From NCBI RefSeq assembly GCF_007860125.1, contig NZ_SJPW01000003.1, positions 582,764 through 646,763 of the forward strand: DNA of 64,000 bases, written 5' to 3'. Numbering within the stretch: position 1 is the stretch's first letter; every line of letters begins with the position of its first letter. This document shows, piece by piece, positions 3,395-47,485 of this stretch. Under the pieces are notes generated by a model. It was not told the origin of the DNA. It was given only the letters and a program-made list of their open reading frames with translations, and did no database searches. Source of the stretch: Rubripirellula tenax (GTDB taxonomy: Bacteria; Planctomycetota; Planctomycetia; Pirellulales; Pirellulaceae). Made by a program: the position numbers and the translations under genes.

Positions 3395-3450
3395 TCGACC
3401 GGCACGATCGAACTAGTTTGGTGACGGCTGCGTAACCCTTGTGTTAAACT

Positions 3451-3497: not shown

Positions 3498-3531
3498 CGT
3501 TTGTCCGCGAGCTAATCCGGAGATCTAGCAG

Positions 3532-6745: not shown

Positions 6746-6819
6746 CAGCGACAGGCCTTCTTCGCCATTGGGTGCCGAAACGGGAAATTGAAATGTAGGA
6801 TAGCGTCTAAAAATGACTT

Positions 6820-7545: not shown

Positions 7546-7584
7546 AAGATTCATCGATCGGCATCGACGCGGACACCGAATCGA

Positions 7585-8082
7585 TCATCGCAGCCAGAAC
7601 GTCAACACGTCGCTGACTTGGTCCGAATCCAATTGCTCGTGAGCCGCCAATTCGTCCGCCAGCCCCGCGATGGCGGGCCAATACGGTTGGCGACCAAGAT
7701 GATCGTGTAAGGTGACGATGATCTTTTCGAGCAGCCGAGTACGTCGCTCGGGATCGGCAACGATCGCTCCGCAGGTTTGCATCGCGCGATGCCAATCATC
7801 CTGCCAAGGACCGTAAAGTGCCGGATGCAGTGGTTCGCCCCGATAGATCATCTCGGCTACCGGACCGCCAAGAAACGTCATGATTTCTCGCTGGCGTTGG
7901 ACATCCAGATTCGGATCCACCGTTCCCCAGTTCACGCGACAGTCGCCGAAGCGTTCCGGAAGATAGTCGTCGGCTTCCCCCCAAAGCTGCATCGAATCGA
8001 CGTTCGCCCCCAATGCGTAGGCGACGACGGCGTGCCCCGCCTCGTGATACGCTGTTAGCGTTTCGTCGTCGTCGTGATTCAA
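7585..8082 (-). CDS. Stand-alone M41 (FtsH-type) zinc peptidase-like domain protein
   Basis: The 165-aa protein opens with TAYHEAGHAVVAYALGA, the HExxH zinc-binding and catalytic site of the FtsH/M41 family (His13, Glu14, His17). It then has GGPVAEMIY, aligned with the conserved Gly-Gly-Arg-Ala-Ala-Glu helix of FtsH, and an acidic WQDD segment that may give the third ligand. No AAA ATPase and no membrane segment are present, so it could act on already unfolded or small substrates, or be regulatory. The start is a TTG at 8082 with AGGTGA upstream. It is divergent from the alcohol dehydrogenase (89-base gap) and convergent with nth. Confidence 0.75.
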   Translation of the reverse strand: MNHDDDETLTAYHEAGHAVVAYALGANVDSMQLWGEADDYLPERFGDCRVNWGTVDPNLDVQRQREIMTFLGGPVAEMIYRGEPLHPALYGPWQDDWHRAMQTCGAIVADPERRTRLLEKIIVTLHDHLGRQPYWPAIAGLADELAAHEQLDSDQVSDVLTFWLR

Positions 8083-8171
8083 GGAGATGTCACCTGTGCT
8101 AAAATGCCCGCTACGAAGATACTGTCGATGTTTTAGAAGAACCAGCTACCCCGCAAAATAGAATCATCGCG

Positions 8172-9212: not shown

Positions 9213-9215
9213 TCG

Positions 9216-11450
9216 GTGACTTCCGATCCAGACTCGGGGAACCAGTCACGGCACATCGGTTTGTTCGGCGCCACGGGCGTCGGCGTCGGCGCGATCGTCG
9301 GCGGCGGCATTCTGGCGTTGGCGGGCGTCTCGTTCGCGACCGCCGGACCGTCCGCGATCATTGCGTTCGCACTCAATGGTGTGATCGGGCTGCTGACCGC
9401 ACTCAGCTTTGCCGAGATGGCGTCGAAATTTCCCGAATCGGGCGGCACGTACACGTTCAGTCGAAAAGTGCTGTCGGTCGAATCGGCATTCACCGTCGGC
9501 TGGGTCGTTTGGTTCGCGTCGATCGTCGCGGCCGTTTTGTACGCGTTGGGATTCGCGCACTTCGGCTTGATTTTTTTGCAAGAGTTGGCGGCGCTGGCGG
9601 GTTGGGATTTGCCCTGGATGCACCAAGCCTGGTTGGTTCCGGCACTGGCGATCGCAACCACGGTGACGTTGGCAATCAGCCTGATGCTGAAGACGGGCGG
9701 CGGCGGTAACGCAGCCAACGTCGGTAAAGTCGTTGTGTTTGGCGTCGTGATCCTTGGCGGACTTTGGGCGATGACACGCCAAAGTGGCGGCGACACTTCG
9801 GCCGCGTTTCGTCCGTTCTTTGCCGGTGGCCTGAGCGGTTTGATCCAGGCCATGGGTTACAGCTTCATCGCGCTGCAAGGATTTGATCTGATTGCAGCGG
9901 TCGGCGGCGAAGTCAAGCAGCCCGAAAAAAACATCCCGCGTGCCATGATTCTGTCGTTGGTGATCGCGCTGTTGATCTACATGCCGTTGTTGTCGGTCAT
10001 CGTTGCGGTGGGTACAACCGACGGCCAATCGATCGCTTCGGCCGCGGCCGAAGATCCCGAAGGCATCGTCGCTATCGCCGCGAGAAATTTCTTGGGACCG
10101 ACCGGTTATTGGTTGGTGATTGTCGCCGCCGTGCTTTCGATGTTCACAGCGCTGCAAGCGAACTTGTTTGCCGCGTCACGTATCGCGCTGGCAATGTCTC
10201 GCGATCGAACTTTGCCAAACGCGATCAGCCGGCTAAGCAAAGGCAAGAACATCCCGACGATTTCGGTGATTGTGACATCGGCGTTGGTGTGTGTGTTGGT
10301 GCTGGCGCTTCCAGATGTGTCGGCTGCTGGTGCGGCATCGAGTTTGATTTTCTTGGTCACCTTTGCGATCGCGCACTGGTTGAGCGTCTTGGTGCGTCAG
10401 CGCAGCGAAGCTAGCCCACCACCGTTTTTGTCGCCGTGGTATCCCGCCGTCCCAATCGTCGGTGGTTTGTCGTGTATCGGATTGGCAATTTTTCAAGGGA
10501 TCGCCGTTCCTCAAGCCGGATTGATCGCGGTCATTTGGTTGAGTCTCGGTGGTTTGTTGTTTTTGACGCTGTTTGCTCGTAGTGCGAGATTGCGAGACGT
10601 ATCGAGTGTCGCTTCGAATCCGGAATTGTCACGACTGCGCGGAAACACGCCGCTTGTATTGGTGCCGATCGCTAACCCTCAAAATGCCGACGCCATGATC
10701 GCGCTGGCAGAAACATTAGTGCCGGCCGCTGTCGGTCGAGTGCTGTTGCAAAACATCGTGGTGGCGCCGCACGACTGGGATCCGCAGCAGGACCCGGAAC
10801 CGACCGAGCGTAGCCATGCCGTCCAGCGAGAACTGATCCACGCGTCCGTTCGGCAAGGCGTTCGCGCCGAAACGCTGACCACGGTGGCGGCATCGCCAAT
10901 GGAAGAGATCGCGCGGGTGGCACGGTTGCACCGGTGCGAGTCTGTCTTGTTGGGTTTAAGCGAGATCGCCGAAGAGGGCGTCGCAACGCCCATTGAAGGA
11001 TTGCTAAGTCGGTTGGACACCGACGTCGTCGTGCTTCGCGCGCCCAAGAATTGGCATCTTGTCGAACAACAACGCATTTTGGTTCCGGTCGCCGGACGGG
11101 GTGGACACGATTACCTGTTGACGCGGTTGCTGGGCAGTCTGGCACGGAACCAGAACTGCGAAGTCAAGTTTATACGCGTCGTTCCCACTAACACGTCGGC
11201 GGCCGATTTGAAACGGGCAAAGAAAGAACTGGATCGATTGGCCTACGACAACTTCGGCGGTCGATGTGAACGAGAAGTTGTGTCGCACGACGACGCGATT
11301 GCGGCGGTGGTCGAGCGAGCCGATGAATCAGGGCTGGTGATCTTGGGCGTCCAGCGAATCGGCCCACGGCAAAAACTGTTCGGCCGCTTTACACGCCAAA
11401 TCGCCGGGCAAACCAAGTGCCCGGTGATCGTCATCAGCCGTCGCGGTTAG
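9216..11450 (+). CDS. APC-superfamily permease fused to two universal stress protein domains
   Basis: The 744-aa protein starts at a GTG 3 bases after the dehydrogenase stop. Residues 1 to about 450 form a 12-helix amino-acid/polyamine/organocation permease, with the TM1 unwinding motif GVGAIVGGGILA near residue 15 and GFDLIAAVGGEV near TM6. Two UspA-like domains follow: one from about 476 (VLVPIANPQ) to 608, the second from about 619 (ILVPVAGRGGHD) to the end. APC-Usp fusions are known in cyanobacteria and planctomycetes; the Usp pair probably binds nucleotide and tunes transport. The stop codon overlaps that of the convergent giant gene (TTAG at 11447-11450). Substrate unknown. Confidence 0.9.
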   Translation: MTSDPDSGNQSRHIGLFGATGVGVGAIVGGGILALAGVSFATAGPSAIIAFALNGVIGLLTALSFAEMASKFPESGGTYTFSRKVLSVESAFTVGWVVWFASIVAAVLYALGFAHFGLIFLQELAALAGWDLPWMHQAWLVPALAIATTVTLAISLMLKTGGGGNAANVGKVVVFGVVILGGLWAMTRQSGGDTSAAFRPFFAGGLSGLIQAMGYSFIALQGFDLIAAVGGEVKQPEKNIPRAMILSLVIALLIYMPLLSVIVAVGTTDGQSIASAAAEDPEGIVAIAARNFLGPTGYWLVIVAAVLSMFTALQANLFAASRIALAMSRDRTLPNAISRLSKGKNIPTISVIVTSALVCVLVLALPDVSAAGAASSLIFLVTFAIAHWLSVLVRQRSEASPPPFLSPWYPAVPIVGGLSCIGLAIFQGIAVPQAGLIAVIWLSLGGLLFLTLFARSARLRDVSSVASNPELSRLRGNTPLVLVPIANPQNADAMIALAETLVPAAVGRVLLQNIVVAPHDWDPQQDPEPTERSHAVQRELIHASVRQGVRAETLTTVAASPMEEIARVARLHRCESVLLGLSEIAEEGVATPIEGLLSRLDTDVVVLRAPKNWHLVEQQRILVPVAGRGGHDYLLTRLLGSLARNQNCEVKFIRVVPTNTSAADLKRAKKELDRLAYDNFGGRCEREVVSHDDAIAAVVERADESGLVILGVQRIGPRQKLFGRFTRQIAGQTKCPVIVISRRG

Positions 11451-11998
11451 CGGTCATCCAGCAGCGACAACAACGCTTCGTCCGTCGCCTCCGGTTCGAT
11501 GTTCGCCTGTCGAGCCACCGCGTTGATGACGCGAAGCGCATCCTGTGCCGAAATGTTGCCGTTGCCGTCGACGTCATAGTACGGCGCCGGCCGAACGGTT
11601 TCTGTGATCGTGTGCAACCGACCGTCAGCCTTGTCGTGAACACTTCCGCGAGCAAGTTCATTCAGGATCACGAGCGCGTCGCCGGTTGTGACAGTGCCAT
11701 TGTCATTCACGTCGGCAGCCAGGATCGGGTTCTGCCAAGAATCGGGCAGCTCTTTTTCCAGGCGACCTGATAGACGTGCCATTTGGTTGATCACCTGCAA
11801 CGCATCCAGCCCCGTGACCTTTCCGTCACCGGTCACATCATAGAACGGCGGTGGTCCGACATCATCGGTGATCCCAAACAAGTCGCGAGTGTCGGGATCG
11901 TGAACGCTCTGTCGGCCCAACTCGTTGATGATCAGCAGTGCATCCCGAGCGGTAACGTTACCCAGGTTATCGACGTCGAAGCGATCGATCGGATTCTG
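11447..11998 (-). repeat. Four C-terminal dockerin-type EF-hand-like repeats of the giant protein
   Basis: Residues about 11830-12012 contain four calcium-loop motifs of the dockerin kind: DVDNLGNVTARDAL, DVTGDGKVTGLDAL, DVNDNGTVTTGDAL and DVDGNGNISAQDAL. Each is followed by a helix such as LIINELGR or RVINAVARQ. They form two tandem pairs separated by short linkers. Planctomycete giant proteins often end this way; partners (cohesins) are not evident in the window, so the repeats may act as calcium-stabilised anchors or sorting signals. Confidence 0.85.
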
Positions 11999-14900
11999 CC
12001 ATCCGAAGTTGAAATTCATGCGAACGTCGCTAACGGTGATGCTGCTTGCATCGTCACCGAACCCGATCAAGTCGAAGTACAACGTCACCGCTTCGCCGGA
12101 CGCAGATGGGGGAACCGGCAACGTGATGCGGATGTCCTCACGATTGACATCGATGACGTCGCCACTAGCCGCTGCACCCGAGACCACAACGCCACTGGCA
12201 TATCGCACAGAACCATCGGCCTGCAAATTAAACGCCGCATCGCCCCCGGCCATGCCGACCATTTCACCAGCAACCGAAGTTGTCTCGACCGCCCGCAAGA
12301 TCGCTGCCTCAAAAGCTTCCGAAGGATGCGTGCCCGCTACATCCATCGAAACGCCGCCGAGCGTAAACGAGACCGAGCGAAGTCCCGCCGGCACCACAAA
12401 TGTCTGCGAAAGATCGCTGACCATGCCGACGTCCTCGCGGATCGTTGCGATTCCTTCGGTATAAGTGACATTGCCAACGGTCTGCCATTGGGCGGGGGCG
12501 GGACCATCGAACGAACCGTTTTGCAATCCTCGTGGCACATCGTCAATCGCAACGATGTGATCGTTCAGCGCCGTGAAGCCCAACGGGACGTTTCCGGTCA
12601 GGTTGCCCAGCACGATCGACGAATCGAATCCGGTTCGCGAATTCACGAGCACGGTTTGGATGACTTCCGCTGTGGCCGCATCAATTGACTTGCGAACGCC
12701 TGGTGCGATCGCGCCAGCCATCAAGTGGTTCGGGTGCGTCCACGGGTCCAGTTCATTGCCGGTCGGATCCAAGTGCAGGTCGCCGTGAGTGGTCGTGATG
12801 TGGCGTCGTCCATCGTGCGAACCGACGTGCAAGTCGTCGAAGCCATCAAACTGGACCGTGAAGCCGTTGATGTGACCCAGTTCGTGCGTTATCACCGTCA
12901 ACGCGTCGAATTGATCGGCGATTTGGAAACTCCACGCGTTCCCGTCGACGTCGAATTCATCGTCTTGGCTGGGCGTCGAATCGATGAACCAACCGTGCCC
13001 GGCCGCGTCATCGTCTAGCACGATCGTCGCCTCGGTTGCTCGGCCGAATTGGTCGACTTGATTGACCATCGCGTAGCCCAGCGAAGTGCCGTCGAGCGGC
13101 TGGACGTGCAGGTTCAGTTTCAGATTCACGTCGCTGGACGTGGCGGCGTTCCAGTCGCGAAGCGCCTCGGCCACCAGCGGTGCAAAGTCGGCGGCGGCGA
13201 CGATCGTTCCGGTCGACGATCGGGCCAAGCGATTGGCGTGCAGGTTGCCGAACACATTGACCGACGACGGATTGCTCTGACGAAACGCCGGGTCGAGAAA
13301 GGGCGAAAAGTGGGTGACGATCTGCAGCGTCCCGTTGTTGTCGACGACGCTGATGCCACCGCGGGCAATCGGCGTCGATATGGCAGCGGATGCATCGGCG
13401 ATCCTCGCCAGCGACTCGTTTTGGTAGACGTACCATTCGACCGGCAGCTTCAAACCCTCTTGTCGGGCGATGCGACCGATCGGCCCGGTGGCACTTGCCT
13501 GACGGACGATGGAGTCAATCGCCGCGCCACCTTGGACGCCCTTCTTGGTCAATCCATTGGGGAAAGTGACGTCGGCCTTCTTAAAGATGCTCAGCAGTTT
13601 GTCGCCGCCGCCGCGAACGATCAGCCCCATGTCCAGGTCTGTCGAGCCGGGCATCATGGGGCTCTTCGTCAAGTCCGCAAGTGTTCGCCAGGCCTCAAGC
13701 GGTCGCCTGAGCGTTTCCGCCAAGCGAGTCGTGTTACCCGAGTACACGTCTTTGACAAATCCGGCGCGATAAGCAATTTGCGTTAGCGTCGCCCCGGCGG
13801 TGCCTTGAAGCATCAATGCCACCACGTCACCCTGCGGCAGATCCGTGATTTTCGTATCCCCATTATTGATGCCACGGACCAAGTCGGCAAGCTCGGTCAA
13901 TTGTTCGCGATTTGTGAAGGGTGTGTCCAGAATGTGCTCGAAGGAATCGTTGGATGTCTTGAGCAGCCGGTTGGCGAGGTGGTTAAAGGGGCCTTCAAAA
14001 GTAAAGGGATGATCTTTCAAAATGGTGTGCAATGCTTCGGCTTGTTGGTACCGATGGGCGGCTAGCGGCGACGCCATCGCGCCGTCTTTTCCATTGGGGA
14101 AGTAATGCTGCATGTTTCGCTGATAGACGGCGATTGCCGCGCGTTGTTTAATCAATGTATCGATGTGATTTGGCAGGATCTCCGCTAAACGCAAGTCGTC
14201 GCGAGTAGCGCGGCCCGACGCGATTGCCGCCTCCGCCATGCCCATCCGCATCCTTGCATCCTCAACCGTCGAGATCTTTCGATACGTTTGCTCGGCTTCG
14301 TTGCGACGGATCATGTCGGGCAGAGCTTCGCGAACGTCTTGATGCGAAAATGGTTTGGACAACGTCCGAAACCCTTCGATGCCGCTATCGATCAGCGCGG
14401 ATTGATGCATCGCGATCGCCTGGTCTCGGACACTGGCAAAGGTGTCCGGATCCAATCGTGCCCCGGTTCCCCGAATCGCTTCATGGACCATTCTATTAAA
14501 GACGCGTTTGTAAAGTGAGCTGCTGTTGACGTTCTGGGTGATGATCTCGTTCATCGACAAACGAATCGCTTCCCCCTTCCGCACGTTCTGCAAACTGTCC
14601 AAGAACCGACTATCCACTTCGATCGGACCTCTTCCGGGATTCAGGAAATCGGTTCGCGTAGCATCATTGATCAATGCCGATTCGGTTTGTCGCCAACGGG
14701 CGGCGTCCGCGGGTGAAATGTTGTTATCGGGATCGCCGATCATCCGCCCCAGCGACCCCTGGGCTTCAACCCCCGCCTCACTGATCGTGCGGGCCGCCAA
14801 GTCCATCGCGTCATATTCTCGGCTGCCACGAACGATCGCAACCTTTTCAAACGTGTTGGCTTGCAACAACGGCGGCGCGACCGCGCCGCCCGAACTGGTC

Positions 14901-17900
14901 GAACGGTTGCCCGCGTTGGAGGATGTGTTCGGGCTGGCCGTGGCGTTGTATTCGGACAGACGGCCGACATCGGACTTTAGATCGAAGAAGGTTTTGGTCG
15001 CCGCCGAAACTCTGTTGCGAACACTGACCGCGTCCTTTGCGATTTGGCGACCCGCGGTGCGAAATTCGACCGCGATCTCTTGAGCTTGACGCCGGGCACT
15101 GCGCGGTTTCAGAATTCCTCCGTGGTTATTTCCGCCCATGTGGGCCGCACCGACGAGGTCTCCTGCCAGACCGATCGCCGCTCCTTGCACTCGCGCCCAA
15201 CGCGAATCAAAAGTCGGCTCGAACGCGAACGCGGCTGCGGTGTCGGCAACGTTGCTGCTGAATCCTAGGTACGCGCCGGTGCGTCCACCGAAACGCGCCG
15301 CGACGACACCAACCAGGATCTTGCTGGCATCGACCAACAGCAATCGACGATCGTAGTCGTCTTTTTTGGCGTTGCCGTACAGGTCAGAGATTCCCTTCTT
15401 CGTCCCGTAGGCCAACAACCCCAGCCCGATAGCGGGACCGATGACGGGGATCGCCGGAGCAAGAGACGTCGCGATCGCGGGAATCTGTTCCATGGCATCC
15501 TTGACTACGCCCGTTCCAAACGTCGCCACGTTGAACGGGGAACCGAACACGCTGACCGTGTTGGACTGTTCCCACGCCAGTTTTTGGTTCGCGCGATCAC
15601 CACTGATCGCACGCATCGAATCGCTGAACGGATTTTGGATCGCGGTCGCGGTCAGTCCCGTTGGGTCGGCCATGTTGACCGGATCGTTCATCGCATAGCG
15701 ATACAGATTCGGCTCCGACGAGGTGAAGCCCGACGGGTCGGTGCTGATGAAACGTCCGTTGGACGGATCGTAGTAACGCCGCCGCATCTGGTACCAACCC
15801 AGTTCGTCCTCGTACGCGCGGCCGGCAAAGAAGTAACGGTTCAGAACTTCGTCGTCGGTCCGTGACGTAATGCTTCCGTAGGCGTTGTAGCGAATGTGGT
15901 CGACCAGTTCTTGATCGACGTTGACGATGTCCGCGACCGTGCCGGCGATGTCCGGCAGCAACCACAACACTTCGCCGCCACGATCTTGCGCCAGCGGCGT
16001 GTCGCCCGCTCCGCCGTGCAAGTAGACGACATCGATGACCGGTTCGTCGCCCGTCCCAATGCCATCGACGTCGACGATTTCCAGCAACACGTCCTGGTCG
16101 TTGTACAGATAGCCTCGCCAAGTCGTGCCCTTGATCCCGACACCGTCCGGGTCGACTCGTTTCCAGACGCGTCGATCGAGCGCGTCGTAGCCGAGTTCGA
16201 CGACTTCAGTCAGCACGCCGCCGGAGTCCACCGTCGTCGCGGCAACCAAACGATTTCGGTGATCCCACGTGAATGTCGTCTTGTCACCGCCATCGATGAC
16301 GGTCTGCGAAACTAAGTTGCCTTCGTTATCGTATTCATAGTTGAACACGCCGTCGGTCGACAAACGATTTTGCGATCCGTACGCGTAGGTGTCGTGAACC
16401 GACGATTCGGTGCGATTGCCCGCGTCGTCCAACGCGTACGATTCGTCGGGCCGTAGCGGGTCGGTGTGATCGACCGATAACAGGCGTCCCGCGTCGTCGT
16501 AATCGTACGTCGATTGACCGTACAAGTTCGTGACGGTTTTGATTCGGTCGTCGCTGTCGAAGGTGTAGTTGTACCGGTTGATGGCGCTGGCACCGGCCAA
16601 GTGTTCGATCTGTTCGATCAGATGGCGATCGTTCAGCACCGTGTTGGTCGTTAGCAAAAGCGTGTCATCGTTGAACCGCCGAACTTGCGAATAGACCGGC
16701 ACGTTTTCGTGATAGTCGAACTCGACGGACTTGGTCGCAACACTGGTGCCGGTCTGGCGGATCCCACGCAAACGATCGTTGTTGGAATCGTAGGTGAAAG
16801 CTTCCGCGACCACACCGATCGACGAACCGAAATCGACGGAGAACGCATCGACTTGGCTGATCGCGTTGTAGCTCAGCCCCGTCGTGAACGTCGGTGTACC
16901 CGCCAAGAGAGTCGTTTGGGTCGATTCGATTCGGCTGCTGGCATCGCCGGAGAAACTGAACGTGTTGACTGTCCCCGAACCGCCATCGGCCGACGTCATC
17001 CGTCCGATCGCGTCGTACGTGAACGACAAACCGCCTAGTGAATCGTCGTCGCCGTTGGACCAGGACTCGGTCAGCATTCGATGGTTGCCGTCGTAGCTGC
17101 GCGTTACCGTTCGGTCATTGCGGTCGACGTAACTGACGACGTTGCCCTCGGGATCGTACGCGAACGAGCGCGCTCCGAATTCGTTTGTTTCGCTGACAAC
17201 ACGGTGCATCGCGTCGAACACGAACGTGGTCATGTTGCCTTCGCCGTCGATGATCTGGTTCAAGTTGCCCGCATCGTCGTAGTCCAACCGCGTCAGTCCG
17301 CCGTCGGGCTCGCTGATGATGGTCTGTTGATCCAGCGAGTTGTAGGTGTACGTGTACGGACCATCGGCGCTGCTGTCCTGTTTCGTGCGGATGTTGCCGT
17401 TTGGCAAGTACGTGTACCTGACCGAATTACCGGCATCGTCGGATTCCGATTCGACTCGGTCCAGATCGTTGTAGACGTAACGCCGCGTGATCGCGCCGAC
17501 GGTGGTCGTTTCGATGTTGCCTGCGTCGTCGTACTGGATCGTTTGCGTTTCGCCGACGCGGGGATCGATTTTGACGACCCGCTGCGCCTTGTCATAATCC
17601 GTCACCAACGACACTTGTCCAGCCGCGTCGGTCTGTTCGATTTGATAACCATCCGGCGTATCAATGTAGCGCCAAGTGTTGACCAAGTCGTCGACGCCAT
17701 CGCGGACGATCGTTTCGTTGGTGACACGTCCGACGCGGTCGTATTGCCGAGTGATCTTGTGGCCGAGCGCGTTGGTGCTTTCGATGATCTGACCGACGTT
17801 GTTCTGGACAAACTCTTCGCGTACCAGCCGCGGATCGTCCGGCGTTCCGGTTTGGTGCGTCATCGACGTGATGCGACCGAGTCCGTCGACGGTGTTGGTG

Positions 17901-20900
17901 ATCTTGTAGAACTCGCCGCGACCGGGCGTCTTGGAAATAAGATTTCCGACGCCGTCGTACTCGTACTTTTCAACGATCCAGTCGTCTTCGCCCGGGGACC
18001 CAACGCCTTGATCGTCGGGCGTTCCGGCGCGACGACGCGTCTGGACCAAACGACCGCGAGCGTCATAGGTGTGTTCGGTGCGGAAGTATTCGCCGCGCGG
18101 ATCGATCTCGGCGACCTTTCGCCCCAATTCGTCGTACTCGTACTTCATCGTGATCGCGTCGGGCGAACCGAAGCCGCGAGTCACCGAAAGTGCCATGCCA
18201 CGGGCGTCGTAAACGCTGCGGCTGATGTTGCCGTTTCGGTCGACGATCTCGATCACGTTTCCAGTGGCGTCGTACTTGGTCGTCGAAGCGTTTCCGACCG
18301 CATCGATCGACTCGGTGACGCGTCCCAAACGGTCGCGAAGGGTAAAGCTTTGCCGGCCGAGCGGATCGGTCATCTGGACTCGCAAGCCGCCGCCAAGGTA
18401 GTCGTAGCGAGTCGTTTCGTTTTCCGCATTGGTCGACGTAAGCAGCCGATTGAGCCCGTCGTAGGTGCTGGTGGACGTGCCGTAAACATCGGTGCTACTT
18501 AGGACATTGCCAAAACGGTCGCGAGTCAAAACGATCTCTTCCCCCACCGGATCGACGGTTCGGATCAAACGTCCCAGTCCATCGTACTGGTTCGTCGTCA
18601 CGTACAGCGGCCCGCCGATGCCGACGTGCTCGATCAAGTTGCCTTCCACGTCGTAGCGATGCGTTTCGGTGACCGACGGCGTGCCATGTTCGGACAGCAC
18701 CGCGTACGTGGTCGACAACCGACGGCCGGCCGCGTCGACTTGGTAAGTCGTCGCGTAAACTTCGCCTCGCGGGTCGACATGGCGGACCAAGTTTCCGGCG
18801 ACGTCGTATTCGTAAGCATCCATTTCCAATGTCGGCGAATCCGCATCCCCCGATGCGGTCTGCACGGTCAGCGCTTCGCCGCGGTGGTCAAACGTGGTGA
18901 ACGACGCAAACGCGTCCCCTCGCGGATCGACGGACTCGATGACATTGCCGACACCGTCGTACGCCATCCTGTACGTCAGCGTCGGTCCCGGTTGATCTTC
19001 GCTGCCGCTGGGACGTTCGACTTGAATCAGCCGACCGGCTCCATCGTATTGAAAGAACGAATCGGCCCACGCCCCGCGCGGATCGCCGATGCGTGTTCGG
19101 TTGCCGGCCAAGTCGTAGTCATACGTTGTCGTGTTGTCTTCCGCATTGGTTTCGGTTCGGACCAGCGATCGTCCATCAAACGTCCGCGTTAGCGTCGACC
19201 GACCATCGTCGTTGGAAAACGGTCCTTCAGTCTTGATTGCGTTGCCGATCGAATCGAAGGTGGTCAGCGTTTCGTAGCCCGCCGCATCAATGATGCGGAA
19301 CACGCGGTTGAGTTGGTCGTAGCTGAGCGTTGTCACGCGAGTCGGCGTCGTTCCATCGCCGACTTCCGTGATCGTTTCGATGTTGCCGATCGCATCCAGG
19401 ACATAGTCGGTGACCGCGCCGATCGTGTTGGTCATTCCGACTTGGCGACCGGCCGAATCGTAGCGATAGGTCATCGGCGGGATGTCTTCGCCGGCGACCT
19501 CACGAGGGTAATGCACCCGAGAGACGGTTCCGCCGGGATGGAAGTCGTAGCGCGTGATGGCGGCGTCCATCGGAAACTCGGGACTGCCTTGCGGCACCGA
19601 ACTTTCCTTGATGCGGCCGAGTTCGTCGGGCACAAAGGTGGACGTGAAGTAAGCGCCCCGCGGATCTTGCTCGGACAACAGATTGCCGGCTTCGTCATAC
19701 GTGAATCGGGTGACGGCGACCGGGCCGGGGTTGTCTTCGCTGCCGGTCGGTTCGGTGACGCGGATCAATCGGTTGCCAGCGTCGTAGGCATACTCGTTGG
19801 TGTGGTAGTCGCCTCGCGGATCGGTCGATCGAATCAGGTTGCCGACCAAGTCATACTGCGTCTTCGTGACCAGCGAACCGCCGGATTCATCGCCCAGGCC
19901 GACCGTTGTCGTTTGCAAATGGTCCAGTGCGTCGTAGGTGTTCGCGGTAAAGAACTGCGGCCCACGAGGGTCTTCGTAACGCAGCAATCGCCCGACTTGA
20001 TCGAACTCGAACTTTTCGACCGCCAACTCATCGACGCCCTGCGGCCCGACGCCGTGCGTGGACAAGGTCAGGTGTCCCAGCAAGTCGTATTCGTACGTCG
20101 TCTGGAATCGTCCCGGCGTGGCCGCGTCGAACGTGCGGGGATCGATTTGTAAGATTACATTGCCCAGCACATCGTACTCTGTCTCGCTGCGGTTACCCAA
20201 AGCATCGACCGCCGCAATCCTTCGTCCGACGCCGTCGTAGTACATCCGCGTGACGTAATCGGCGTCGCTGGCCGCGCCGACGCAATCGCTGCGACCGCTG
20301 CGCGGGTCGACCATCGCGATCACTTGGCCGTTGTCATCGTTGACGAAGCAGGTCGTGTGGCCCAGGCTGTCCGAAACGCTCTCACGGAAACCCAACTTGT
20401 CGTACGCGGTCACCAGCACCGCCGCGTTTTCGCCGTCCAGCGACGGTGACTCCATCCGCGTTACGTTGCCAGTCGCATCATAGAAATACTTGGTTTCCTG
20501 GTCGAGTTGATCGTAGGAGACCAGTAGCCGACCGGCCGCATCGTACTCCATCCGCATTTCCAAGCCGTCGCCGCGAGGATCGGTGCGACGAATGACGTTT
20601 CCGATCTCGTCATAGTCGATCGTGATGTCGTACGGTTTCGGATCGTCGGGAGTGCCCGTCGGTCCGCTGATGCTGGTCGTGCGGTTGGTTTTGTCGTAAC
20701 CGAACGTGGTGGTGTAAAACGCACCCCGCGGATCGGTCATCGACAGCAAGTTGCCAACCTTGTCGTAGTCATATGTCGTCGTCGCCGGCTTCTCCGTGTT
20801 GTTGGCGACGGTCACGGTTTCGGTGAAGAACAAGTTATCGAACGTGGTCAGCGTTTCGCGGTTGAGCGCGTCAAAGGTTCGGCGAACCATGCCCAGCGGA

Positions 20901-35900: not shown

Positions 35901-38900
35901 GTCTCGCCCAATCCGACCAGACTCGGTCCGCCGACACCCACGTTGACTTCCAGCGGGTCCGCCGATTCGACTTGGAAACGATACGGATCGATCGCGATGC
36001 GACCATCGGGGTGCAGCACTTGAACGTCGTACAATCCGTGCGGCGCATCGCGTAGATCGAACACCGCAATGATTTTGGTCGCGTCGACTCGCGTGATCGA
36101 TACCGGCGCGAACTCGGCATACGTCGGCCGTACCAAACGCACCGCCGCTTGTTCGGGGAACTCGGCGCCGGTGATTGTCACCGTGACGTAACGATCGTCG
36201 CCGCCTGCGTCGGGCGTAACGCCGGTGATCCCGAACGGAATGCGAGTCGCCGTCATCTCGACGGGATACTCGTTTCGCGTTCGCGGATCGTAAGTCTCGT
36301 CTTCCAGGTCAATCCGAATGCCGGCGCGAGCCAGGATGAAGTAGCGACCGCCTAGCGTTTCGGGAATGACCAGCGTTTGGTCGGCCTTCAAATAGCCTTG
36401 GTAAGCGGCGTCAAAGTCGAACGGCTTCGGCAGTGCTTCGTGCTTCGCATACAGTTCGTGCGAGCCGACGTCGGTGATGCTGTCCAAGCCGACGCGAATC
36501 GTTTGCCCGGGCGACGTGTCGAGCTGGAACAATCGCGAAACGCCGACGGCCAACTGATCGGCCAGCGGAATGTCCAATCGCAACAAGGGCACGGTGACAT
36601 TGATCGCTTCGACCGACGGCAGGTCGTTGTTGCGGTTGTTTTCGCCTTCGAAGACATCGTCGAAAATGTCCGTTCGAACGATGATTCGGTAGTCGCCCGG
36701 TAGCGTCGCCGGGATCTCGAAATCGAGCGTCGACGTGTAAGTATCGCCCGGATTCAGCGTGCGAGCGCCAATCGGGTCGACACGGCCCAACAGCAAGTCG
36801 CCCACGTCCCAGACATTGTCGGCAGACAGATACACCGCGTCGGCGATGCGAGCACTGGCCCGTTCGTCGCCCGTGTTTTGTACCGTCCAACTGACCGACG
36901 AGATGTCGCCGACCTGACCCGATGCGGCAGCCGAAACGTCAACGACTTGCAAATCCGATGGCGGCGGCAGAACGATGATCATCGGCGTGTCGCTGATGAT
37001 GATGTTGTTCGTTTCGTTCGTTTCTAACACCTCGCCGTCCGGTCGTGATACGCGAGGAACGTCGGTCGCGACGATCACGTAGTAGTCACCGACAAGCCCG
37101 CGAGGAACGCGAACGGTTTGGGTGATCGATCCGGTCTGGCTGGCGGCGAGTGCATCCGTACGAGCAATCTCTCGCACGAAGTGATCGCTGGACACGTCCA
37201 AGAAACGATCGCGAGACAGGTAGATGCGGTCGTAGTAGGGAGTTTGACGATCGGGTACCGGGCCGCCGTCGTTGCTGTAGACATACGTGAACGTGAAGTC
37301 GTTACCGACGTCGACGGTTGCGGTGTGAGTCAACGAGTCAATAACGAGGTCGGGTGCCGGAACCAGGGTAACAACCAGCGGCACAGAGACTTGGTTGTTT
37401 CCTTCGCCGTCGAACTCCAGCACGGCGTCTTTGACTTGCAGCGACCGCGTCGGACCCGTGGTCGCTGGATACGGAAGCGGACGACCGTAGCTTCCGTTAC
37501 CAAACGTTGCATCGGCGAACGCGATCAAATGGAAGTCGCCGCCGATGTTGTCAGGAATTCGAACGGGGAAGCTGACCTCGTAACTCTCGCCGATGTCCAG
37601 GACCTCGCGATGTCGCAGTTTGCCCAGTTCGATGTCGTAGGCATCCGTCGATGTGTCGACGGACAAGAACACACGATCCGTCCAGTCATCGACGCGTGTC
37701 GCTCGTGTGCCTGTGTTGGTCACCGTGAATGACACATCGATCAAACTGCCGCTGTCCGGATCAACTGGCACAGCCGCCAAATTTGTGATCGTCAAATCGG
37801 CTTCGGCGTACACGACGTCGATCGGATTGGAAACGCGGAAGTTGTTTTCTTTGTTACCGTCTTCCCACGGTTTGTCCGCTAGGTAATCGACCCAGCCGGG
37901 GAACCCGCTACGGTCCCAGCGGTTCAATATTGGATCGCCAAATCGGCTTAGGGGTACATTGGTAAACACGTGGGCATACCAAGTTCCGCTGCTGCCCGGC
38001 GGAGTTGAGACCACCAAACTGTCATTGAACGATTCACCGGCGCCGAGTTGGTCCGTGAAGACGTGAACTTTCGATCCGGCATAGAAATCGCGGCTCGCGT
38101 CATAGACTTCGTCTTTCGACAGGAACACGTGCTGAGACACCGATTTCGTGTCCGGTGCAACCGGATAGTTGCCTTCGTTGGTGATAGTCCAGCGTACCGT
38201 GATGGGCTCGCCCGATTGGCTCGTCGGCGTTGCCGTCACGGTTTCGACAACCAAATCGGTTAGCGCGTCGACGACGGGGATATCGGTCGAACCGACGTTG
38301 TTGGTCGTGAACGGTCCTTCGTAAACCAGTTGCAGCGTGTTGGTCGGTCCGGCAAGGATCGCGCGAAGCTCGGTTTGCGAAAACTTCTGCAGATCGCTGA
38401 TCTTCGTTTCACCAAGGGGTTTTCCGGTGGCTGCTTCGACTCGCTGCAACACCGCTTTGACTTCATCGAGAAACTTGTCTTCTTGGGTCAGCGCGATTCG
38501 CGGGTCGACGTTCGTTCGCACCAACACGTGGCTGCCCCGCGCCGTCGGCGGTAAAGTGAACTCGGCTTCTTGCGAATAAGATTGTCCCGGTTGCAAGCGT
38601 CCCGAATGAGGCAATGCGAAGACCAGTTGGTCGCTGCTGTCGAAGACGTCGTCTTCGGAAATGTAAATCGCGTCAGCCCAAGATTCACGATCGGTTGCGG
38701 CGGTTCCGATGTTGTCCACGGTCCAGGTCAGCGAGAGCTTGTCGCCGCCCACGATCGGCAGCGGGTTGCCGTCGGTACCGGTGGGAACGGTCACCGTCGA
38801 GACTCGCAAGTCGGCCGGTGGCGTCAGCAACACGTTCAGAGGCGTGCTGCCGTAGTTGGAACCTTCCAAATCGTTCGGCGCATCGGGGTTCACGTTCGAT

Positions 38901-41900
38901 GCGAATGACGCTTCGTAGACACGACCGTATCCGTCGGCGTAGACGGTCAAGAAGTATTGGCCGGTCAGTCCCGCAGGAATGTTCACGATGGTTTCGGCTT
39001 CGTAGCTGTCGCCAATCTCCAACACGCCGCTGTGGCGATAGGTGCCGACCAAGCGGTCGCCGCGACCGGGCTTTGGACCATCCTTGCCCAGCGTCAACCA
39101 AATTTGGTCCGTCCACGAACCGGGGTCCGTCGGGCCCGCGCCCAAGTTGCTGACCGCGTAGCGAACCGTGAACGATGAATCGTCGAACGTATCGCCAGGC
39201 CCTTGCACTGACGTGACGACCAGATCGGGTGGCGGTACCGGGTTGGCATCGATCGCAACGGCCGCGGCCGCACGGTTGTTGTTTTCGCTGGGGAATTCGT
39301 CAACGGTGTTGCGAGCATCGGTTTCGACCAACACGAACCAGTTGCCCGAAATCGCGCGCGGGATCAAGAAGCTGGCCGTCGTCATGTACTCGGTTGACAA
39401 CCCGTTGGGCGAACCGGGGAAGCCCAACGCCGAACCATTATCCAGCTCACCAAGCAGCAGTGCGCCCGATGTGCTGCTGGACGATGACGATAACCAAACG
39501 CGATCCTTCCAGCGGCTGCCCGCCGACGGCGTGTCCGCGGTGCCGAGGTTGCGCACGCGGAACTCGACCGGCAACAGCGTGCCCGCAGTGATCGCGGCCG
39601 GATACTCGCTCTGCACGGTGACTTGCAAGTCGGGGCGTGCCTTCAAGTTGATTTGGAACGGATCGGTGAAGCCCGTATTGAGAACGTTGTCTGTTTCAAA
39701 AATGACATCGTCTGTATCGGTATCAACGAAGAAACGAAATTGGCCGGTGGTCCGCGGTAATAATACGACCTCAGTTCGCGTGACCGACTTACCCGCTTCG
39801 ATCGGATCCTCGACCGCGTACTTTCCGAATTGGTAAGTCTCGCTGCCGCCGGTCGATTGCAGGAACAGCTTGTCTCGCCAACCCGTTTCCGTCGTTTCGC
39901 CTTCGTTCTTGATCGTCCACGTCACCTCGACTTGGGTGCCGTCGCTGAACTCCGTCGCGCCGCCCACCGAAACATCGGTCACCACCAAGTCGGCATTCGG
40001 CGGCGGTACCAGGAAGACATCGATCGCTTCGCTGCGCGCTTGGTTGCCGCCACCCCCATCGGCAATCGCTGCGTTGGAGTTGTAGATGAACTCGTTCGGT
40101 CCGCCGGTGCGAACGAACACGTATTGCTGGCCACCGGTGGTTCGCGGCAAGACGAAGTTGTCGGTCCGCGTATACGAACCGCCCAGTGAGAGCGCGCCGC
40201 CACGAGTGCTGCTGCCGATCAGTTTTAGTCCCGTCGCACCGGTCGGATCGGGAGAAATGTAGACATTGTCCGTCCACGTATCGCGGTCCGTCGTCGCGAT
40301 GCCACGATCGGCGTTGTTGCGAACTGTCCAACTGACTTCAATGGGTTGCCCTGAAACCGGATCGCCGGCGGTCGTGACGGAATCAACGACCAAATCGCTA
40401 TAGGGAGTCCGCGACACATCGACGAAATGATCGGGCGAACCGACGTTGGGCGCATCGTCTGCGAGCTCAAAGACGACATCGCCAGAGTCGGTTTGCACGA
40501 ACAACGTGAACCGACCGTTGGTACGATTGGCCAGCTGCACGATTTCGGTGCGCGAGTATTCGGCGCCAACCGGTACCGCGCCGATGTGTGTGTACGTGCC
40601 CAGCACAATATCGTCGGCGTCACCGAGAATGTCATCCGTCGACAAGATCACTCGGTCGGTCCAAGTGTTCACACGACCGGGGCCGGCGCCGACGTTTTTC
40701 ACGGTCCACGAAACGGTCAAGTCCACCGGGTCGCCGACCAATAGCTCCGGTGCAGTGACTTGCGATACCGTTAGGTCCGCGTACGGGAATAGCGAAATTT
40801 CGACCGCATCGCTAACCGCTGGCGATGTGTCTTCGCCGCTGCCTTCGTTGACGTTGTTGTTCGCATCGGGGACGACGATGAAGTGATAGTCGCCCACGAC
40901 AGATTCGGGTAAACGCACCGATAGAGATCGTGTGATCGAACCGCCGATGGCCAAGTCGTCCGCGGCGAACAGTTCACCCAAAAGTACGTCTTCCGTCGAA
41001 AAGGCGTCGTCGGACGAGAGATACACCGCATCGGTCCAGTCCGAAGTGGCCGCTTTATCGCCATCATTGGCGATCGTCCAGTTGACCGTGACCAGTTCGC
41101 CACTGGTCGGATTTTGGCCGGCCGCCAACACGACGCCACTGGCGACCAAGTCGGGCAGCGGCGCAGTGCTGATCGCGATCGACGCGGACGATGAAGTCGT
41201 GTTGTTGCCTTCCGCAGTCGGCTCGACCACACGATTGGTCACATCCGTTTGCACGATGACAAAGTAGTTACCTGCGGTGACGGACGCGGGCACCACAAAC
41301 GTGCCGGTCGTCGTGTAGGACGCGTTGGATCCCAGCGAGCTGCTGTGCGTCACATTGCCCAACAAAATGTCGCCGCCAAAGTCGGTGTCGCTTGACAGGT
41401 AAACGCGATCGACCCAGCTCGTCGCGATCGTCGTCGCCGTGCCGTCGTTGCGAACACGCCAAGTCACGTCGATGTTGTCGCCAATGAATCCGCTGGCCGG
41501 GACGGTGATCGCATCGACGATCAAGTCGGCCGGCGGGTCGGCGACTGCGATCGCAATGGGTTGGCTGGTCGTATTGTTTACGTCGCTGATCTCGAAAACC
41601 TGGTTCGATGAATCGGTGCGAACCAGGATGTGGTAATCGCCATCGATCTCAAACGGAATCGTGGCGTCGATAAACGCAGTGTAAGTCTCGCCGTCGACGA
41701 GCGTACTGCTTTGAGTGACCCGTCCCAGTTCGACATCGCCGCTGTTGCCGTAGATGTTGTCTTGCGACAAAACAACACGATCGGTCCACGGATTGATCGC
41801 GGTTGTTTCTCCTTCGTTTCGAACGGTCCACTCGATGCGGACGACGTCGCCGTTCTTTGCCGATGTTGGAACCGTCAGTGAATCGATTGTTAGGTCGGGC

Positions 41901-44900
41901 GCTGCGAACGTGACCATCGCGGTGAACGTGTCTTCGTCGGGTTCACCAAAGACGTCGTCGCCGTCTTGGTTCATCGCATTGCCCGACGGATCGAAGATGT
42001 CCGGGCCGATGATCAGCGAATAGTCGCCCAGTGTTGTTTGGGTCGCAAACGAGATGCGAACCTTGTTCATGTCCATGCCAACGACCTGGCTGACCGGAAC
42101 CACGCCGTTCGGGCCGATCATCGCAACGTCTTGCGGTGTGAAAGTCGACAGATCGATATCTTCGTCAAACACCACATCGATGAACGCGTAAGGCCGAGAT
42201 ACGAAGTCCGGCGTGTACGACAGGACTTTTGGCCCGCCTGAATCGATACGGAACGATCCGGTGAAGACATCTTGGGTCGCCTCGCCTGCGTTTCCGTCTT
42301 GGTCTTGGTCCATCGCGGTTCCACCAGCGTCGACAACGTTGGGACCAATCGCAATCGAGTAATCGCCGGCACTCGTTTGCGGCGCGAACGACAACGTGTA
42401 GGTCAACGTTCCGTCGAACGCGATTCCCGTAACCGCGACAACTCCATCGGGGCCAGTGATCGTCACATCGACAGGCGTGAAGCTGGCCAAATCAACGGCT
42501 TCACTGAATTTCACATTGACCGACGATAAAGGCGCGGGCGTGACGCCGCGAGGCGTGAGGTCCGTAATGAACGGGCCGGCCCCCGTAACGGTCAAAGTGC
42601 TTACGTAGCGGTCCTCGATTTCCCCTGCGATCGCGTCACCATCGCTGTCCATCAACGTACCACCGACGTCGGTGATTCCGGGTCCGACGATGATTTCATA
42701 GACACCGTCGGCGGTACTGCGTGTCAGATTGATACGGAAGGTCGTGTCGTTGACTCGCTCGATACTGGTTGCCGCAACTCGCCCCGCAGGTCCGGTGATG
42801 CGAACGTCACCGGTGGAGAAACTGCCTTCATCAATGGGAACGTTGAACGTGACATCCAGCGAATCAAACGCGCCGACTTGCGTGCCCGACGGCGACTGTG
42901 AAACGATTCGCAGGGGTTGCCGGTCGACCGTGATGGTGCTGATGTAGACGTCGGCCGATTCGCCGCCGACGCCGTTGTTGTTTTGGTCATGCAAGTTGCC
43001 CGATACGTCACGCGCCGACGGCTGGATCACCAGTTCGTAATCTCCGTCGATCGGTTGCGGCGGAAAGAACAATCGAAAGGTCGTGTTGGTGTCATCGGTC
43101 GGCGCGACACCGAGCGTGCGAATGGGGTTGATGGGAAAGGCGGGATTGGTTTCGACTTGCAATCCATCATCGGCACCCACCAGCTTGAAAACGTCGGCAT
43201 CGAATTCGGTGAGTTCGCCTTCGGCGGCGGAGAGTTCGAAACCAGACGAGCCGGTAAACTCAACCATCACAAAACGCAGCGGGTATTCGCCTGCCGCAGC
43301 GAAATCGAACGTCACCAAATCGGTACCGAATCTCCGTCCGGTCGAACGTTGGGCTTCGAACTCGCCGATATTCAATCCGTAGCTATCATCGGAACCGATC
43401 GCGAAGGTCCACTTGCCCGCCGTTGGAATCGTCACCGTCGCGGTGGCTTCCAAGGCGAAGTAATCGGCGTCGACTGAGCTTTCCAACGGGTTCAGGTTGT
43501 CGTCGGCAAAATTTTGTCCCTCGGGACCATAGTTGATGACCGTGACATTCTCGCTGGCTCGCAGGCCCGGTGAATTCGGGTTGGCCAGCAGCGCCTCGGC
43601 ACCTGCCAATCCCGAAAACGTGCCAATTGAATCGATGCCGCGAACGCTGAAACCGCTGATCACCGCGTCGGGATCATACGCATCGCGCGCGGCGACGCCT
43701 GCGGCATCGAACAACTGCACATCACGTTGTGTCAGCGTTGTCGGATCGATCGCTTCGTTGAACGTGACCGTGACGCTGGTCAGCACCGATGATGTCGTGC
43801 CGTCGGGAGTTTGCGAAACGATTCGCGGCCCAGCCTTATCGACGATGAACGATCCGGTAAACACATCGTCGACCGCTTCGCCGGTAGTGCCGTCTTGATC
43901 TTGGTCCATCGCGGTGCCGGCTGCGCCGAAAATTTGCGGGCCGACCGAAAGGGTATAGCTGCCCGAATTGCTGATGACGTTGGTAAGTACCACCGTCATC
44001 GATCGATCTGTGAGCGACGTGACCGATTCGATGCCGACAGCGGTGGGCCCAGATAGCGTGAAATCACTCAAGTCAACGGACGAAGCAACGATCGGCGAAT
44101 CGAACGTGACGAGCAAACGATCCTTTGCAGGCAACGAATCAAGCTCGCCGCCGTCGCGAAGGGCAAGAATCTCTGCATCACTGACGGCTCGTTCGACGAT
44201 CGAAACTTCGTCGAACAACCCGGTGAAGGTTCCCGCGTTGTTGAACGTGTCGCTTCCGATTTGAGTTCCGGAACTTGACGGTTCATAGGCTTCACCCGTG
44301 TCAACGCTGTTTCGCAGTGCCCCGTCGGTATAGATGTGCAGAACACCATCACGCAGCGTCGCGGCGATGTGAGTCCAAACGTCGTCCGTGACTGCAACGC
44401 CGCTATCAAGCGTTTGGCCATTCTTGTAGTACGCAACGTAGTTGCCGTCGCGGATGGCCAAAGACCAGTCGCGACTATCACCGTTGCCACCGACAATCGT
44501 GATACGTCCGGTGGCGGGGGTAGTGCTGGGCTTCAACCATGCGGCGAGAGTCCAATCGGCCGCGGGTGCCCAAGTACCCAGATCGACTCGTTCTCCACCC
44601 AACAACGCGAACGCGCTGCCGCCGGTGCGACCGGCTGCGTAGTTATTGGTTCCAATTCCGTTTCGAAGACCGGTTGCATCCTGCGAGTTGCCTTCGGCTT
44701 CGTAACGGTGATGGGGCGGAGGCGGCAACGGCGAAAGTCTTTCGAGCGTCAACACGCGCGGACCGATCGGTCGTGGGGGGACCGTTAAAAACGCGCCGTA
44801 GTCCACATGGTCGCTGACCGGTGTACCACTAGGGTTGTCGTTGATGAAGCCGTCCGTACCCGAGGGATCATGAGGCCCGCCGACGCTGCCCCAGTAGTTC

Positions 44901-47485: not shown

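What the first reader, a model, noticed from the sequence alone, without database searches (positions are those of the whole stretch)
11447..47485. A 36-kb single gene for a 12,012-residue mosaic protein
The reading frame is uninterrupted over 36,039 bases, placing it among the longest bacterial genes. The order beta-helix, LamG, Ig, CARDB x13, propeller, cadherin-like x9, short RHS, dockerin pair, propeller, full RHS, peptidase, dockerins combines adhesin stalk, toxin-cocoon and anchoring parts in one chain. Keeping such a frame open implies strong selection.
Basis: partly seen in the sequence, partly recalled or inferred. Interest (0 to 1): 0.85.

Follow-up and report, generated by a model that had tools for sequence, protein, structure and literature searches.

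The report
Giant surface protein with swappable payload
A 12,012-residue bacterial protein, probably on the cell surface, keeps similar ends in related species but carries in its second half a roughly 16,000-base cargo section that has been exchanged between species and genera, like a long launcher with interchangeable warheads.

Summary
The frame is real: 11447-47485, minus strand, 12,012 codons, no stop, no N. It is not a one-off: 16 of 241 family genomes (own included) hold a matching open frame of at least 11,000 aa.

Aligning 16 RHS-bearing giants shows a hidden pattern. Centre (3650-6000) and tail recover genera g1 and g85, as rpoB does. Residues ~6455-11,670 (propeller, RHS cocoon, cargo, HExGH domain) do not: a segment of this block rejects both genera (AU p 4e-28, 1e-47). 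Synonymous sites are saturated there within close pairs, and one pair shares a near-identical block (dS 0.08) between diverged flanks (dS 0.6-0.7). Three pairs show similar borders. A ~16-kb block has been exchanged in frame inside one gene.

The Rhs cleavage motif PxxxxDPxGL is in 17 of 17 RHS blocks. The ~790-residue cargo behind it aligns between classes over short stretches at best, and its C-terminal part differs even within two classes. Two relatives carry the same scaffold and tail with a non-RHS payload.

Best reading: a polymorphic, Tc/Rhs-like encapsulated effector carried as an internal, exchangeable payload between lineage-specific ends. Toxicity, cleavage and target are inferred. 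No adjacent immunity gene was seen; both structure predictions failed.

The parts
11447..47485 (-). whole giant gene, 12,012 aa; residue i starts at window 47485-3(i-1)
47348..47380 (-). N-terminal LERLEIRQLLA motif (residues 36-46), resembling the LEPR-xLL sorting motif (name recalled; no NCBIfam hit)
   Evidence: sequence; a related motif found by a simple regex in 11 of 16 aligned giants
44786..47338 (-). right-handed beta-helix part, residues 50-900; moderately divergent between orthologues
   Evidence: Pfam Beta_helix; 66% identity G000-G011 over residues 50-1250 against 94% in the centre
44168..44569 (-). LamG-like domain, residues 973-1106
   Evidence: Pfam Laminin_G_3 E 2.6e-23
41906..44128 (-). 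Big_5 Ig-like domains, with a sub-threshold PA14 match, residues 1120-1860
   Evidence: Pfam Big_5 E 3.5e-18; PA14 below cut-off
36566..41899 (-). about 13 CARDB repeats, residues 1863-3640
   Evidence: Pfam CARDB E 5e-76, 6 stretches; 12 motif starts plus one by eye
33146..33988 (-). possible first propeller, residues 4500-4780
   Evidence: reading only; no HMM hit
29876..32578 (-). He_PIG / cadherin-like repeats, residues 4970-5870
   Evidence: Pfam He_PIG E 5e-62, 7 stretches
28496..29368 (-). short RHS-like stretch, residues 6040-6330, at the end of the scaffold
   Evidence: reading of the sequence; not resolved by HMM
28166..28318 (-). dockerin pair at the left border of the block, residues 6390-6440
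   Evidence: Pfam Dockerin_1 E 1.1e-6
12470..28123 (-). exchangeable payload block, residues ~6455-11,672; the left border lies between about 6250 and 6455, depending on the pair
   Evidence: breaks in identity, synonymous divergence and trees
24416..26203 (-). second propeller just before the cocoon, residues 7095-7690
   Evidence: TIGR02276 E 2.2e-8; Lactonase and NHL sub-threshold
15656..23788 (-). RHS/YD cocoon, residues about 7900-10,610
   Evidence: Pfam RHS_repeat E 4.5e-140, 34 stretches; TIGR01643 and TIGR03696
15653..15682 (-). PVNMADPTGL, the Rhs autocleavage-type motif, residues 10602-10611
   Evidence: PxxxxDPxGL in 17 of 17 RHS blocks; motif definition from PMC8765631 (passages)
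13286..15655 (-). variable cargo, residues 10611-11,400, no database family
13286..14155 (-). C-terminal cargo domain with invariant R, K, D-x-D and E (nucleotidyltransferase-like by motif only)
   Evidence: alignment of 10 members; not confirmed by Pfam, PDB profile or AF2
12566..13177 (-). HExGHxxGF domain (matrixin-like), exchanged with the block, residues 11437-11640
   Evidence: Pfam M10 E 0.004, below cut-off; motif in 17 of 17 RHS blocks
11447..12469 (-). conserved tail: C-terminal domain and dockerin units, residues 11673-12012
   Evidence: Pfam Dockerin_1 E 1.4e-19, 2 stretches; 88% G000-G011 against 29% in the HExGH domain

Best explanation
The gene encodes a giant secreted or surface chain with a scaffold (beta-helix, LamG, Ig, CARDB and cadherin-like stalk, first dockerin pair) and a dockerin tail that both go with the lineage. 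Between them sits an exchangeable payload block of ~5,200 residues. SHOWN: the block has been replaced in frame between species and genera, with similar borders in three pairs. The cocoon ends in the Rhs motif PxxxxDPxGL in every RHS block examined, and the cargo behind the motif is the most variable part. INFERRED: propeller and RHS repeats form a Tc/Rhs-like closed shell. The shell cleaves at DPxGL and holds an enzyme-like cargo. The stalk presents the shell at the cell surface, and the cargo reaches a competitor, prey or grazer, or acts outside the cell. Homologous recombination in the conserved flanks renews the cargo (and perhaps the shell's antigenic face) without changing the lineage-specific export and anchoring ends.
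For: Related frames of 10,062-12,513 aa. G000 against G011: centre 94%, block 34%, cargo 23%, tail 88%. G000's block is 54-56% to G197 and G195, of another genus. Genera g1 and g85 are clades in rpoB, centre and tail, but block segment 6500-7900 rejects them (AU p 4e-28 and 1.4e-47; quick LG+G4 trees). dS: G234-G237 centre 0.18, block 2.5; G233-G234 centre 0.69, tail 0.59, block 0.083. Similar borders in three pairs. Same locus for the pairs that matter: G000 and G011 share convergent downstream genes (92% and 97%), and six of seven g85 loci share downstream DNA. PxxxxDPxGL in 17 of 17 RHS blocks. The cargo's first ~230-315 residues align within two classes while the rest does not (G231-G236, G011-G159). 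Two relatives carry other payloads on the same scaffold and tail.
Against: No cargo matched a family above cut-off: Pfam on 12 of 17 whole cargoes and on 10 C-terminal domains; PADLOC on 4 pieces. The best match was DUF6861 in G236, E 6.5e-5, below cut-off. AF2 models were unusable. No DNA neighbour travels with the block, unlike antibacterial Rhs and CDI systems with adjacent immunity genes. About 600 more residues follow the cargo, so it is not a C-terminal tip. G195's cargo lacks the D-x-D by eye. No secretion route, expression or cleavage was tested. G228 looks broken. The scaffold is not perfectly vertical: the centre splits genus g77, and the N-terminal ~1,450 residues diverge faster. 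The orphan frame in G195 may be just a 5'-deleted remnant.
Confidence: 0.6

Rival explanations
1. Antigenic or phage-receptor variation: the block is a large surface epitope diversified and exchanged to escape phages or grazers; the cocoon carries no active cargo.
For: The whole block, shell included, is exchanged, not only the cargo; no immunity gene seen; the N-terminal beta-helix/LamG part also diverges.
Against: The cleavage-type motif is kept in 17 of 17 RHS blocks, and acidic and basic residues are invariant in 10 cargo domains, the nine others being 19-57% identical to the first. A pure epitope would need neither.
Confidence: 0.2
2. A general carrier of extracellular enzymes: the scaffold carries different degradative payloads, and the RHS shell is one storage or processing format, for nutrition rather than conflict.
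For: G197p and G240p keep scaffold and tail but carry payloads that read by eye as lipase-like (GHSRG) plus HExxH. Pfam shows only a sub-threshold Matrixin match in G197p and nothing in G240p. The Stieleria varia paper predicts adhesion and glycosyl hydrolase roles for its giants (PMC7717043, section read).
Against: Swapping of cargo behind RHS repeats is a usual mark of conflict systems (PMC3482391, passages). No glycoside hydrolase catalytic domain was listed by Pfam in this gene.
Confidence: 0.17
3. Paralogue confusion: different giant genes, not one locus with exchanged blocks, were compared.
For: These genomes do hold several giant frames. For G195, G197, G002a, G032, G159 and G230 no shared flank was seen, so locus identity is unproved there; the centres of G195 and G197 are only 60% identical although their rpoB is 95.7%, so these two are probably different loci.
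Against: For G000-G011 and for six g85 genomes neighbours are shared, and inside one frame synonymous divergence jumps at similar places.
Confidence: 0.03

Closest known systems
Rhs effectors of T6SS (e.g. RhsA, PMC8765631)
   Same: YD shell, PxxxxDPxGL motif, variable cargo behind it
   Different: no PAAR domain listed by Pfam in this chain; propeller before the shell; cargo ~790 aa, not ~15 kDa; cargo followed by an HExGH domain and dockerin tail; the whole shell is exchanged
Tc toxin TcB-TcC cocoon
   Same: propeller next to an RHS cocoon, then DPxGL and a hypervariable cargo
   Different: one chain with a ~6,400-residue adhesive stalk; TcA partner not searched; dockerin ends; internal cargo
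Polymorphic toxin systems (Zhang et al. 2012, PMC3482391) and CDI
   Same: conserved carrier, conserved pre-cargo part, variable cargo
   Different: exchange unit is a ~16-kb internal block bounded by conserved sequence on both sides; no adjacent immunity gene seen; cargo matches no Pfam family above cut-off
Giant1-5 surface proteins of Apilactobacillus kunkeei (PMC12863079)
   Same: giant surface genes with intragenic recombination and exchange between genera
   Different: proteins of 3,000-8,000 aa with solenoid domains; Giant1-3 diversification described as mostly short events; no cocoon or cargo in the passages that I read
Giant genes of Planctomycetes (PMC7717043)
   Same: family Pirellulaceae, cadherin-like and calcium-binding giant proteins
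   Different: the section read predicts adhesion and hydrolase roles from domains (one protein is annotated with a toxin-system function); it describes no block exchange

Membership tests
Rhs/YD-repeat cocoon proteins | many YD/RHS repeats | tested here: met
   Pfam RHS_repeat E 4.5e-140, 34 stretches; TIGR01643 E 1.6e-86
Rhs/YD-repeat cocoon proteins | Rhs-associated core ending in PxxxxDPxGL | tested here: met
   TIGR03696 E 2e-20; motif in 17 of 17 RHS blocks
Rhs/YD-repeat cocoon proteins | closed shell that self-cleaves | not testable with these tools
   needs a structure and a cleavage assay
Polymorphic toxin system | conserved carrier with variable cargo | tested here: met
Polymorphic toxin system | variable part at the extreme C-terminus | tested here: not met
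   cargo is followed by the HExGH domain and a conserved ~340-residue tail
Polymorphic toxin system | cargo is a known or shown toxin | tested here: inconclusive
   no Pfam or PADLOC family above cut-off; no assay
Polymorphic toxin system | cognate immunity gene adjacent | tested here: not met
   blastn of the flanks of 14 loci shows shared DNA only for G000-G011 and within g85, never by block class; G233 and G234 share the block but no upstream DNA, and only diverged downstream DNA. Diverged or distant immunity genes are not excluded
Polymorphic toxin system | standalone or orphan modules | tested here: inconclusive
   one case, a G195 frame of 3,736 aa, 80% to G197's block end and tail; it may be a 5'-deleted remnant of a G197-type giant
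Tc toxin (TcB/TcC) | SpvB domain and TcA partner | tested here: inconclusive
   no SpvB match listed by Pfam in this gene; TcA not searched in the genome
T6SS Rhs effector | N-terminal PAAR domain | tested here: not met
   no PAAR match listed by Pfam in this gene
DNA polymerase-beta-like nucleotidyltransferase (cargo) | D-x-D plus third acidic residue | tested here: met
   D173, D175, E240 invariant in 10 of 10; members were picked for the motif or by similarity
DNA polymerase-beta-like nucleotidyltransferase (cargo) | fold or profile match | tested here: inconclusive
   no such Pfam or PDB profile match; AF2 pLDDT 47.8
Metzincin peptidase | HExxHxxGxxH/D with Met-turn | tested here: inconclusive
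   HExGHxxGF in 17 of 17, an LMA/VLA-like turn caught by regex in 11 of 17, canonical third His not seen; AF2 pLDDT 35.2

The most novel reading that the evidence does not exclude
A general surface weapon or tool platform in Pirellulaceae: one ~6,400-residue scaffold and one tail, specific to the lineage, bracket an exchangeable payload that can be any of several RHS-encapsulated enzymes or a non-RHS enzyme module. It spreads by double-crossover exchange inside a single reading frame, without immunity genes, because its targets are not kin.
Probability: 0.3. Interest if true: 0.85.

Novelty: new variant of a known kind. Interest (0 to 1): 0.74.

Why it matters
Planctomycete giant genes are usually listed as adhesins by domain content. 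Here their evolution gives a functional clue: a 16-kb in-frame block exchanged between genera points to an interaction or conflict function and names the part to test. It would extend polymorphic-toxin logic from a C-terminal tip to an internal ~5,200-residue payload, and it suggests why such large frames stay open: the ends are under constraint while the middle is renewed.

Tried and rejected
Assembly artefact: rejected. Paralogue mix-up: rejected for G000-G011 and six g85 genomes by neighbours and within-frame dS, not excluded for the others. Foreign base composition of the block: not seen; GC 58-60% throughout. Cargo family by Pfam, PADLOC and PDB sequence: nothing above cut-off. The viral collection gave no cargo relative with the one pattern tried. 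AF2 on the cargo domain (pLDDT 47.8, pTM 0.36) and the HExGH domain (35.2, 0.29), each with 4 sequences: unusable, so no fold search was run. A first rpoB tree read one strand only and was redone with six frames. A ZU5 domain near residue 6720, suspected by eye, is not listed by Pfam at E 10. A papain-like look of G231's cargo is by eye only; Pfam and PDB gave nothing.

Rows dropped and limits: 20 giant-type frames were fetched; 15 of them plus the window's were aligned (16). Left out were G018, G030, G024 and G002b (no Rhs core found, or cut by a contig end or tile end) and G195b (no scaffold). G239, G069, G124, G144, G228 and G071 matched but their full loci were not fetched. In one search cargoes were cut out with a regex for core and HExGH: 17 of 22 frames gave a cargo (16 giants and G195b); G018, G002b, G030, G024 and the G144 fragment had no core, and G124 (fragment) gave no HExGH in the one-strand reading used there. 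All 16 aligned giants passed, so none of those was lost to the regex. Of 17 cargoes, 12 were scanned whole by Pfam (G236 in two pieces); G197 and G195b only in their C-terminal domain; G232, G233 and G237 not. One search used 14 of 16 loci (without G151, G085); one search used 13 of 17 cargoes (without G002a, G151, G085, G233). Trees: the centre tree used residues 3650-6000, not 1500-3650.

Full report
OBSERVATION. The frame is as described: minus strand 11447-47485, 12,012 aa, ATG start, no internal stop, no ambiguous base. It lies in contig C3 (1.07 Mb) of a 7.99-Mb, 99.9% complete assembly. Pfam and NCBIfam confirm the main domains: Beta_helix, Laminin_G_3, Big_5, CARDB (E 5e-76), He_PIG (E 5e-62), Dockerin_1, Big_2 (above cut-off), YVTN propeller repeat, RHS_repeat (E 4.5e-140, 34 stretches in the C-terminal third) and the Rhs-associated core (E 2e-20). 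The peptidase is a sub-threshold Matrixin match (E 0.004). The first propeller was read by eye only.

NOT A SINGLETON. A search of 241 family genomes with residues 6880-7900 matched in 71; in 16 of the 241, own included, a matching frame is at least 11,000 aa, and G233 has two such frames. In the order, the central segment 3640-4480 matched in 61 of 396 genomes drawn; matches of 39% or more over most of the segment lie in frames of 6,757-12,513 aa, apart from G072 (4,630) and the broken or cut G228. The genome-contig scan gave three named records: Pirellula sp. Prado165; Planctomycetes bacterium CA13, whose contig length equals that of G197; and an uncultured Pirellula bin, whose contig length equals that of G151:C53. 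The genome lengths of G234 and G232 equal those given for Stieleria neptunia Enr13 and S. maiorica Mal15 (PMC7717043, passages).

THE KEY RESULT. I tiled the fetched stretches and aligned 16 RHS-bearing giants, the window's included. Identity of G000 to its congener G011 is 66% over residues 50-1250, 94% over 1500-6000, 34% over 6500-10,600, 23% over the cargo, 29% over the HExGH domain and 88% over the tail. In the 6500-10,600 segment G000 is instead 54-56% identical to G197 and G195, of another genus. Block classes read from that table: I (G000, G197, G195), II (G011, G232, more distantly G230, G159), III (G032, G234, G233, G237), IV (G236, G231), V (G002a, G151, G085). Apart from IV, these cut across genera.

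TREES. rpoB recovers genera g1, g77 and g85 with full support and makes G232 and G233 sisters (support 96). Centre (3650-6000) and tail (11,690-12,000) recover g1 and g85. The centre splits g77, since G195 groups with g1 and G197 does not; the tail leaves g77 unresolved. So the scaffold is not perfectly vertical, or G195 and G197 are different loci. The block segment 6500-7900 rejects g1 (AU p 4e-28) and g85 (p 1.4e-47) and joins G233 to G234. These were quick trees under LG+G4.

SYNONYMOUS SITES. Nei-Gojobori dS: G000-G011 centre 0.57, tail 0.59, block 2.7; G234-G237 centre 0.18, block 2.5; G233-G232 centre 0.56, block 2.2; G236-G231 centre 0.48, block 3.0; and the reverse in G233-G234: centre 0.69, tail 0.59, block 0.083. 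Fast protein evolution alone would not produce such synonymous jumps; replacement does. The borders are similar in three pairs (identity): left between about 6250 and 6455, around the first dockerin pair; right about 11,670-11,730, where the C-terminal domain begins. In G233-G234 synonymous divergence is already lower from about residue 4200, so borders may vary between events. The locus is the same where it matters: G000 and G011 share convergent downstream genes (92% and 97% protein identity), and six of seven g85 loci share downstream DNA. Upstream DNA of G000 and G011 does not match, and for the other genomes locus identity is unproved.

CARGO. Behind PxxxxDPxGL (17 of 17 RHS blocks: 16 giants and one orphan frame) lie 700-872 residues in the extracted set. 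A search with the C-terminal part of G000's cargo (329 residues) matched in 11 of 241 family genomes, own included; eight matches lie in frames of 10,062-12,504 aa or in the orphan, three in cut or broken contexts of 1,485-3,642 aa. The search missed G011 and G232, whose cargoes share a short stretch with G000's (72 and 104 residues, 32% and 28%). Ten such domains share invariant R, D, K, P, D-x-D, E, Y and G, which looks like a nucleotidyltransferase active site; that is motif evidence only. Within class IV the cargoes of G231 and G236 align only over their first ~230 residues, and within class II those of G011 and G159 only over ~315: a shared pre-cargo part with an exchanged end, nested inside the block exchange. 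Hydrophobic 19-mers (Kyte-Doolittle 1.5 or more) occur in the first ~275 residues of 12 of 17 cargoes; the maximum in G000's RHS part is 1.22.

MODULARITY. G195 has, besides its intact giant on another contig, a separate 3,736-aa frame that matches G197's giant from residue 8850 to its end at 80%. It can be read as an orphan 3' module or as the 5'-deleted rest of a G197-type giant; I do not count it as proof of cassettes. G197p (10,376 aa, a second giant of that genome) and G240p (10,241 aa) match G000 over residues 51 to ~6850 (58% and 54%) and again from residue 11,667, with only a weak match (25-27%) near 7021-7389 between, and carry no Rhs core. Their payload reads as lipase-like plus HExxH by eye; Pfam gives only a sub-threshold Matrixin match in one of them. 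A frame in G106 does carry RHS and a DPxGL motif. So scaffold and tail accept different payloads.

MECHANISM. Shown: block replacement, a conserved cleavage-type motif, variable cargo. Inferred from known relatives (PMC8765631, passages): propeller plus YD repeats make a closed shell, as in Tc toxins; DPxGL is the autocleavage site; the cargo sits inside. Inferred further: the adhesive stalk presents the shell on the cell; the HExGH domain, which is exchanged with the block, may free the cargo's far end; the tail stays with the lineage because export or anchoring is lineage-specific. Homologous recombination in the conserved flanks fits the borders. In the flanks of 14 loci no DNA is shared by block class (blastn, and ORFs of 80 aa or more were listed over 4 kb but not compared as proteins), so the target may be non-kin (prey, grazers, other bacteria), or immunity lies elsewhere.

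AGAINST. No cargo scanned has a Pfam or PADLOC match above cut-off; both AF2 models failed; there is no expression or cleavage evidence; antigenic variation or nutrition remain possible. The N-terminal ~1,450 residues also diverge (G000-G011 dS 1.64 over residues 50-1250), so a second variable region may exist. One relative (G228) looks broken.

NOVELTY. Literature searches showed no listing (titles and abstract beginnings; lists capped at 15 of 24, 12 of 82 and 10 of 34) on block exchange in planctomycete giants. Polymorphic toxins are described as variable at the C-terminus, with standalone cassettes (PMC3482391, passages). Intragenic recombination in other bacterial giants is known (PMC12863079, abstract and passages). 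I file it as a new variant of a known kind.

Noticed in passing
L137 and L095 (G232), L139 and L112 (G233), upstream of the giant: A separate RHS gene (frames of 4,560 and 4,543 aa, 56% identical) lies about 0.3 and 1.7 kb upstream on the same strand; the ends behind the core look different. About 25% identical to the giant.
   Followed up: partly
L098, L141 (G195:C11): A 3,736-aa frame, 80% to the CA13-type giant from mid-RHS to the end, without the scaffold: orphan module or 5'-deleted remnant.
   Followed up: partly
45234-46715: Three tandem units spaced 591 nt (300-nt cores, 77-84% identical) inside the beta-helix part.
   Followed up: no
9216-11450: AA_permease-Usp gene on the + strand overlaps the giant's stop codon tail to tail by 4 bases.
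   Followed up: no
residues 1-1450, window about 43136-47485: The N-terminal part diverges faster than the centre (G000-G011 dS 1.64 against 0.57); G002a is closest to G195 here (68%): perhaps a second exchanged region.
   Followed up: partly
L035, L036 (G002): A further giant frame (9,344 aa) with the HExGH domain (HELGHLLGYVD); BLAST found no other similarity to this gene.
   Followed up: no
53804-54586: Protein with a PEP-CTERM motif about 6.3 kb upstream of the giant's start.
   Followed up: no
G241, G230:C10, G239:C1, G229: Further giant frames (12,447-13,995 aa) with a distant copy of the central segment.
   Followed up: no
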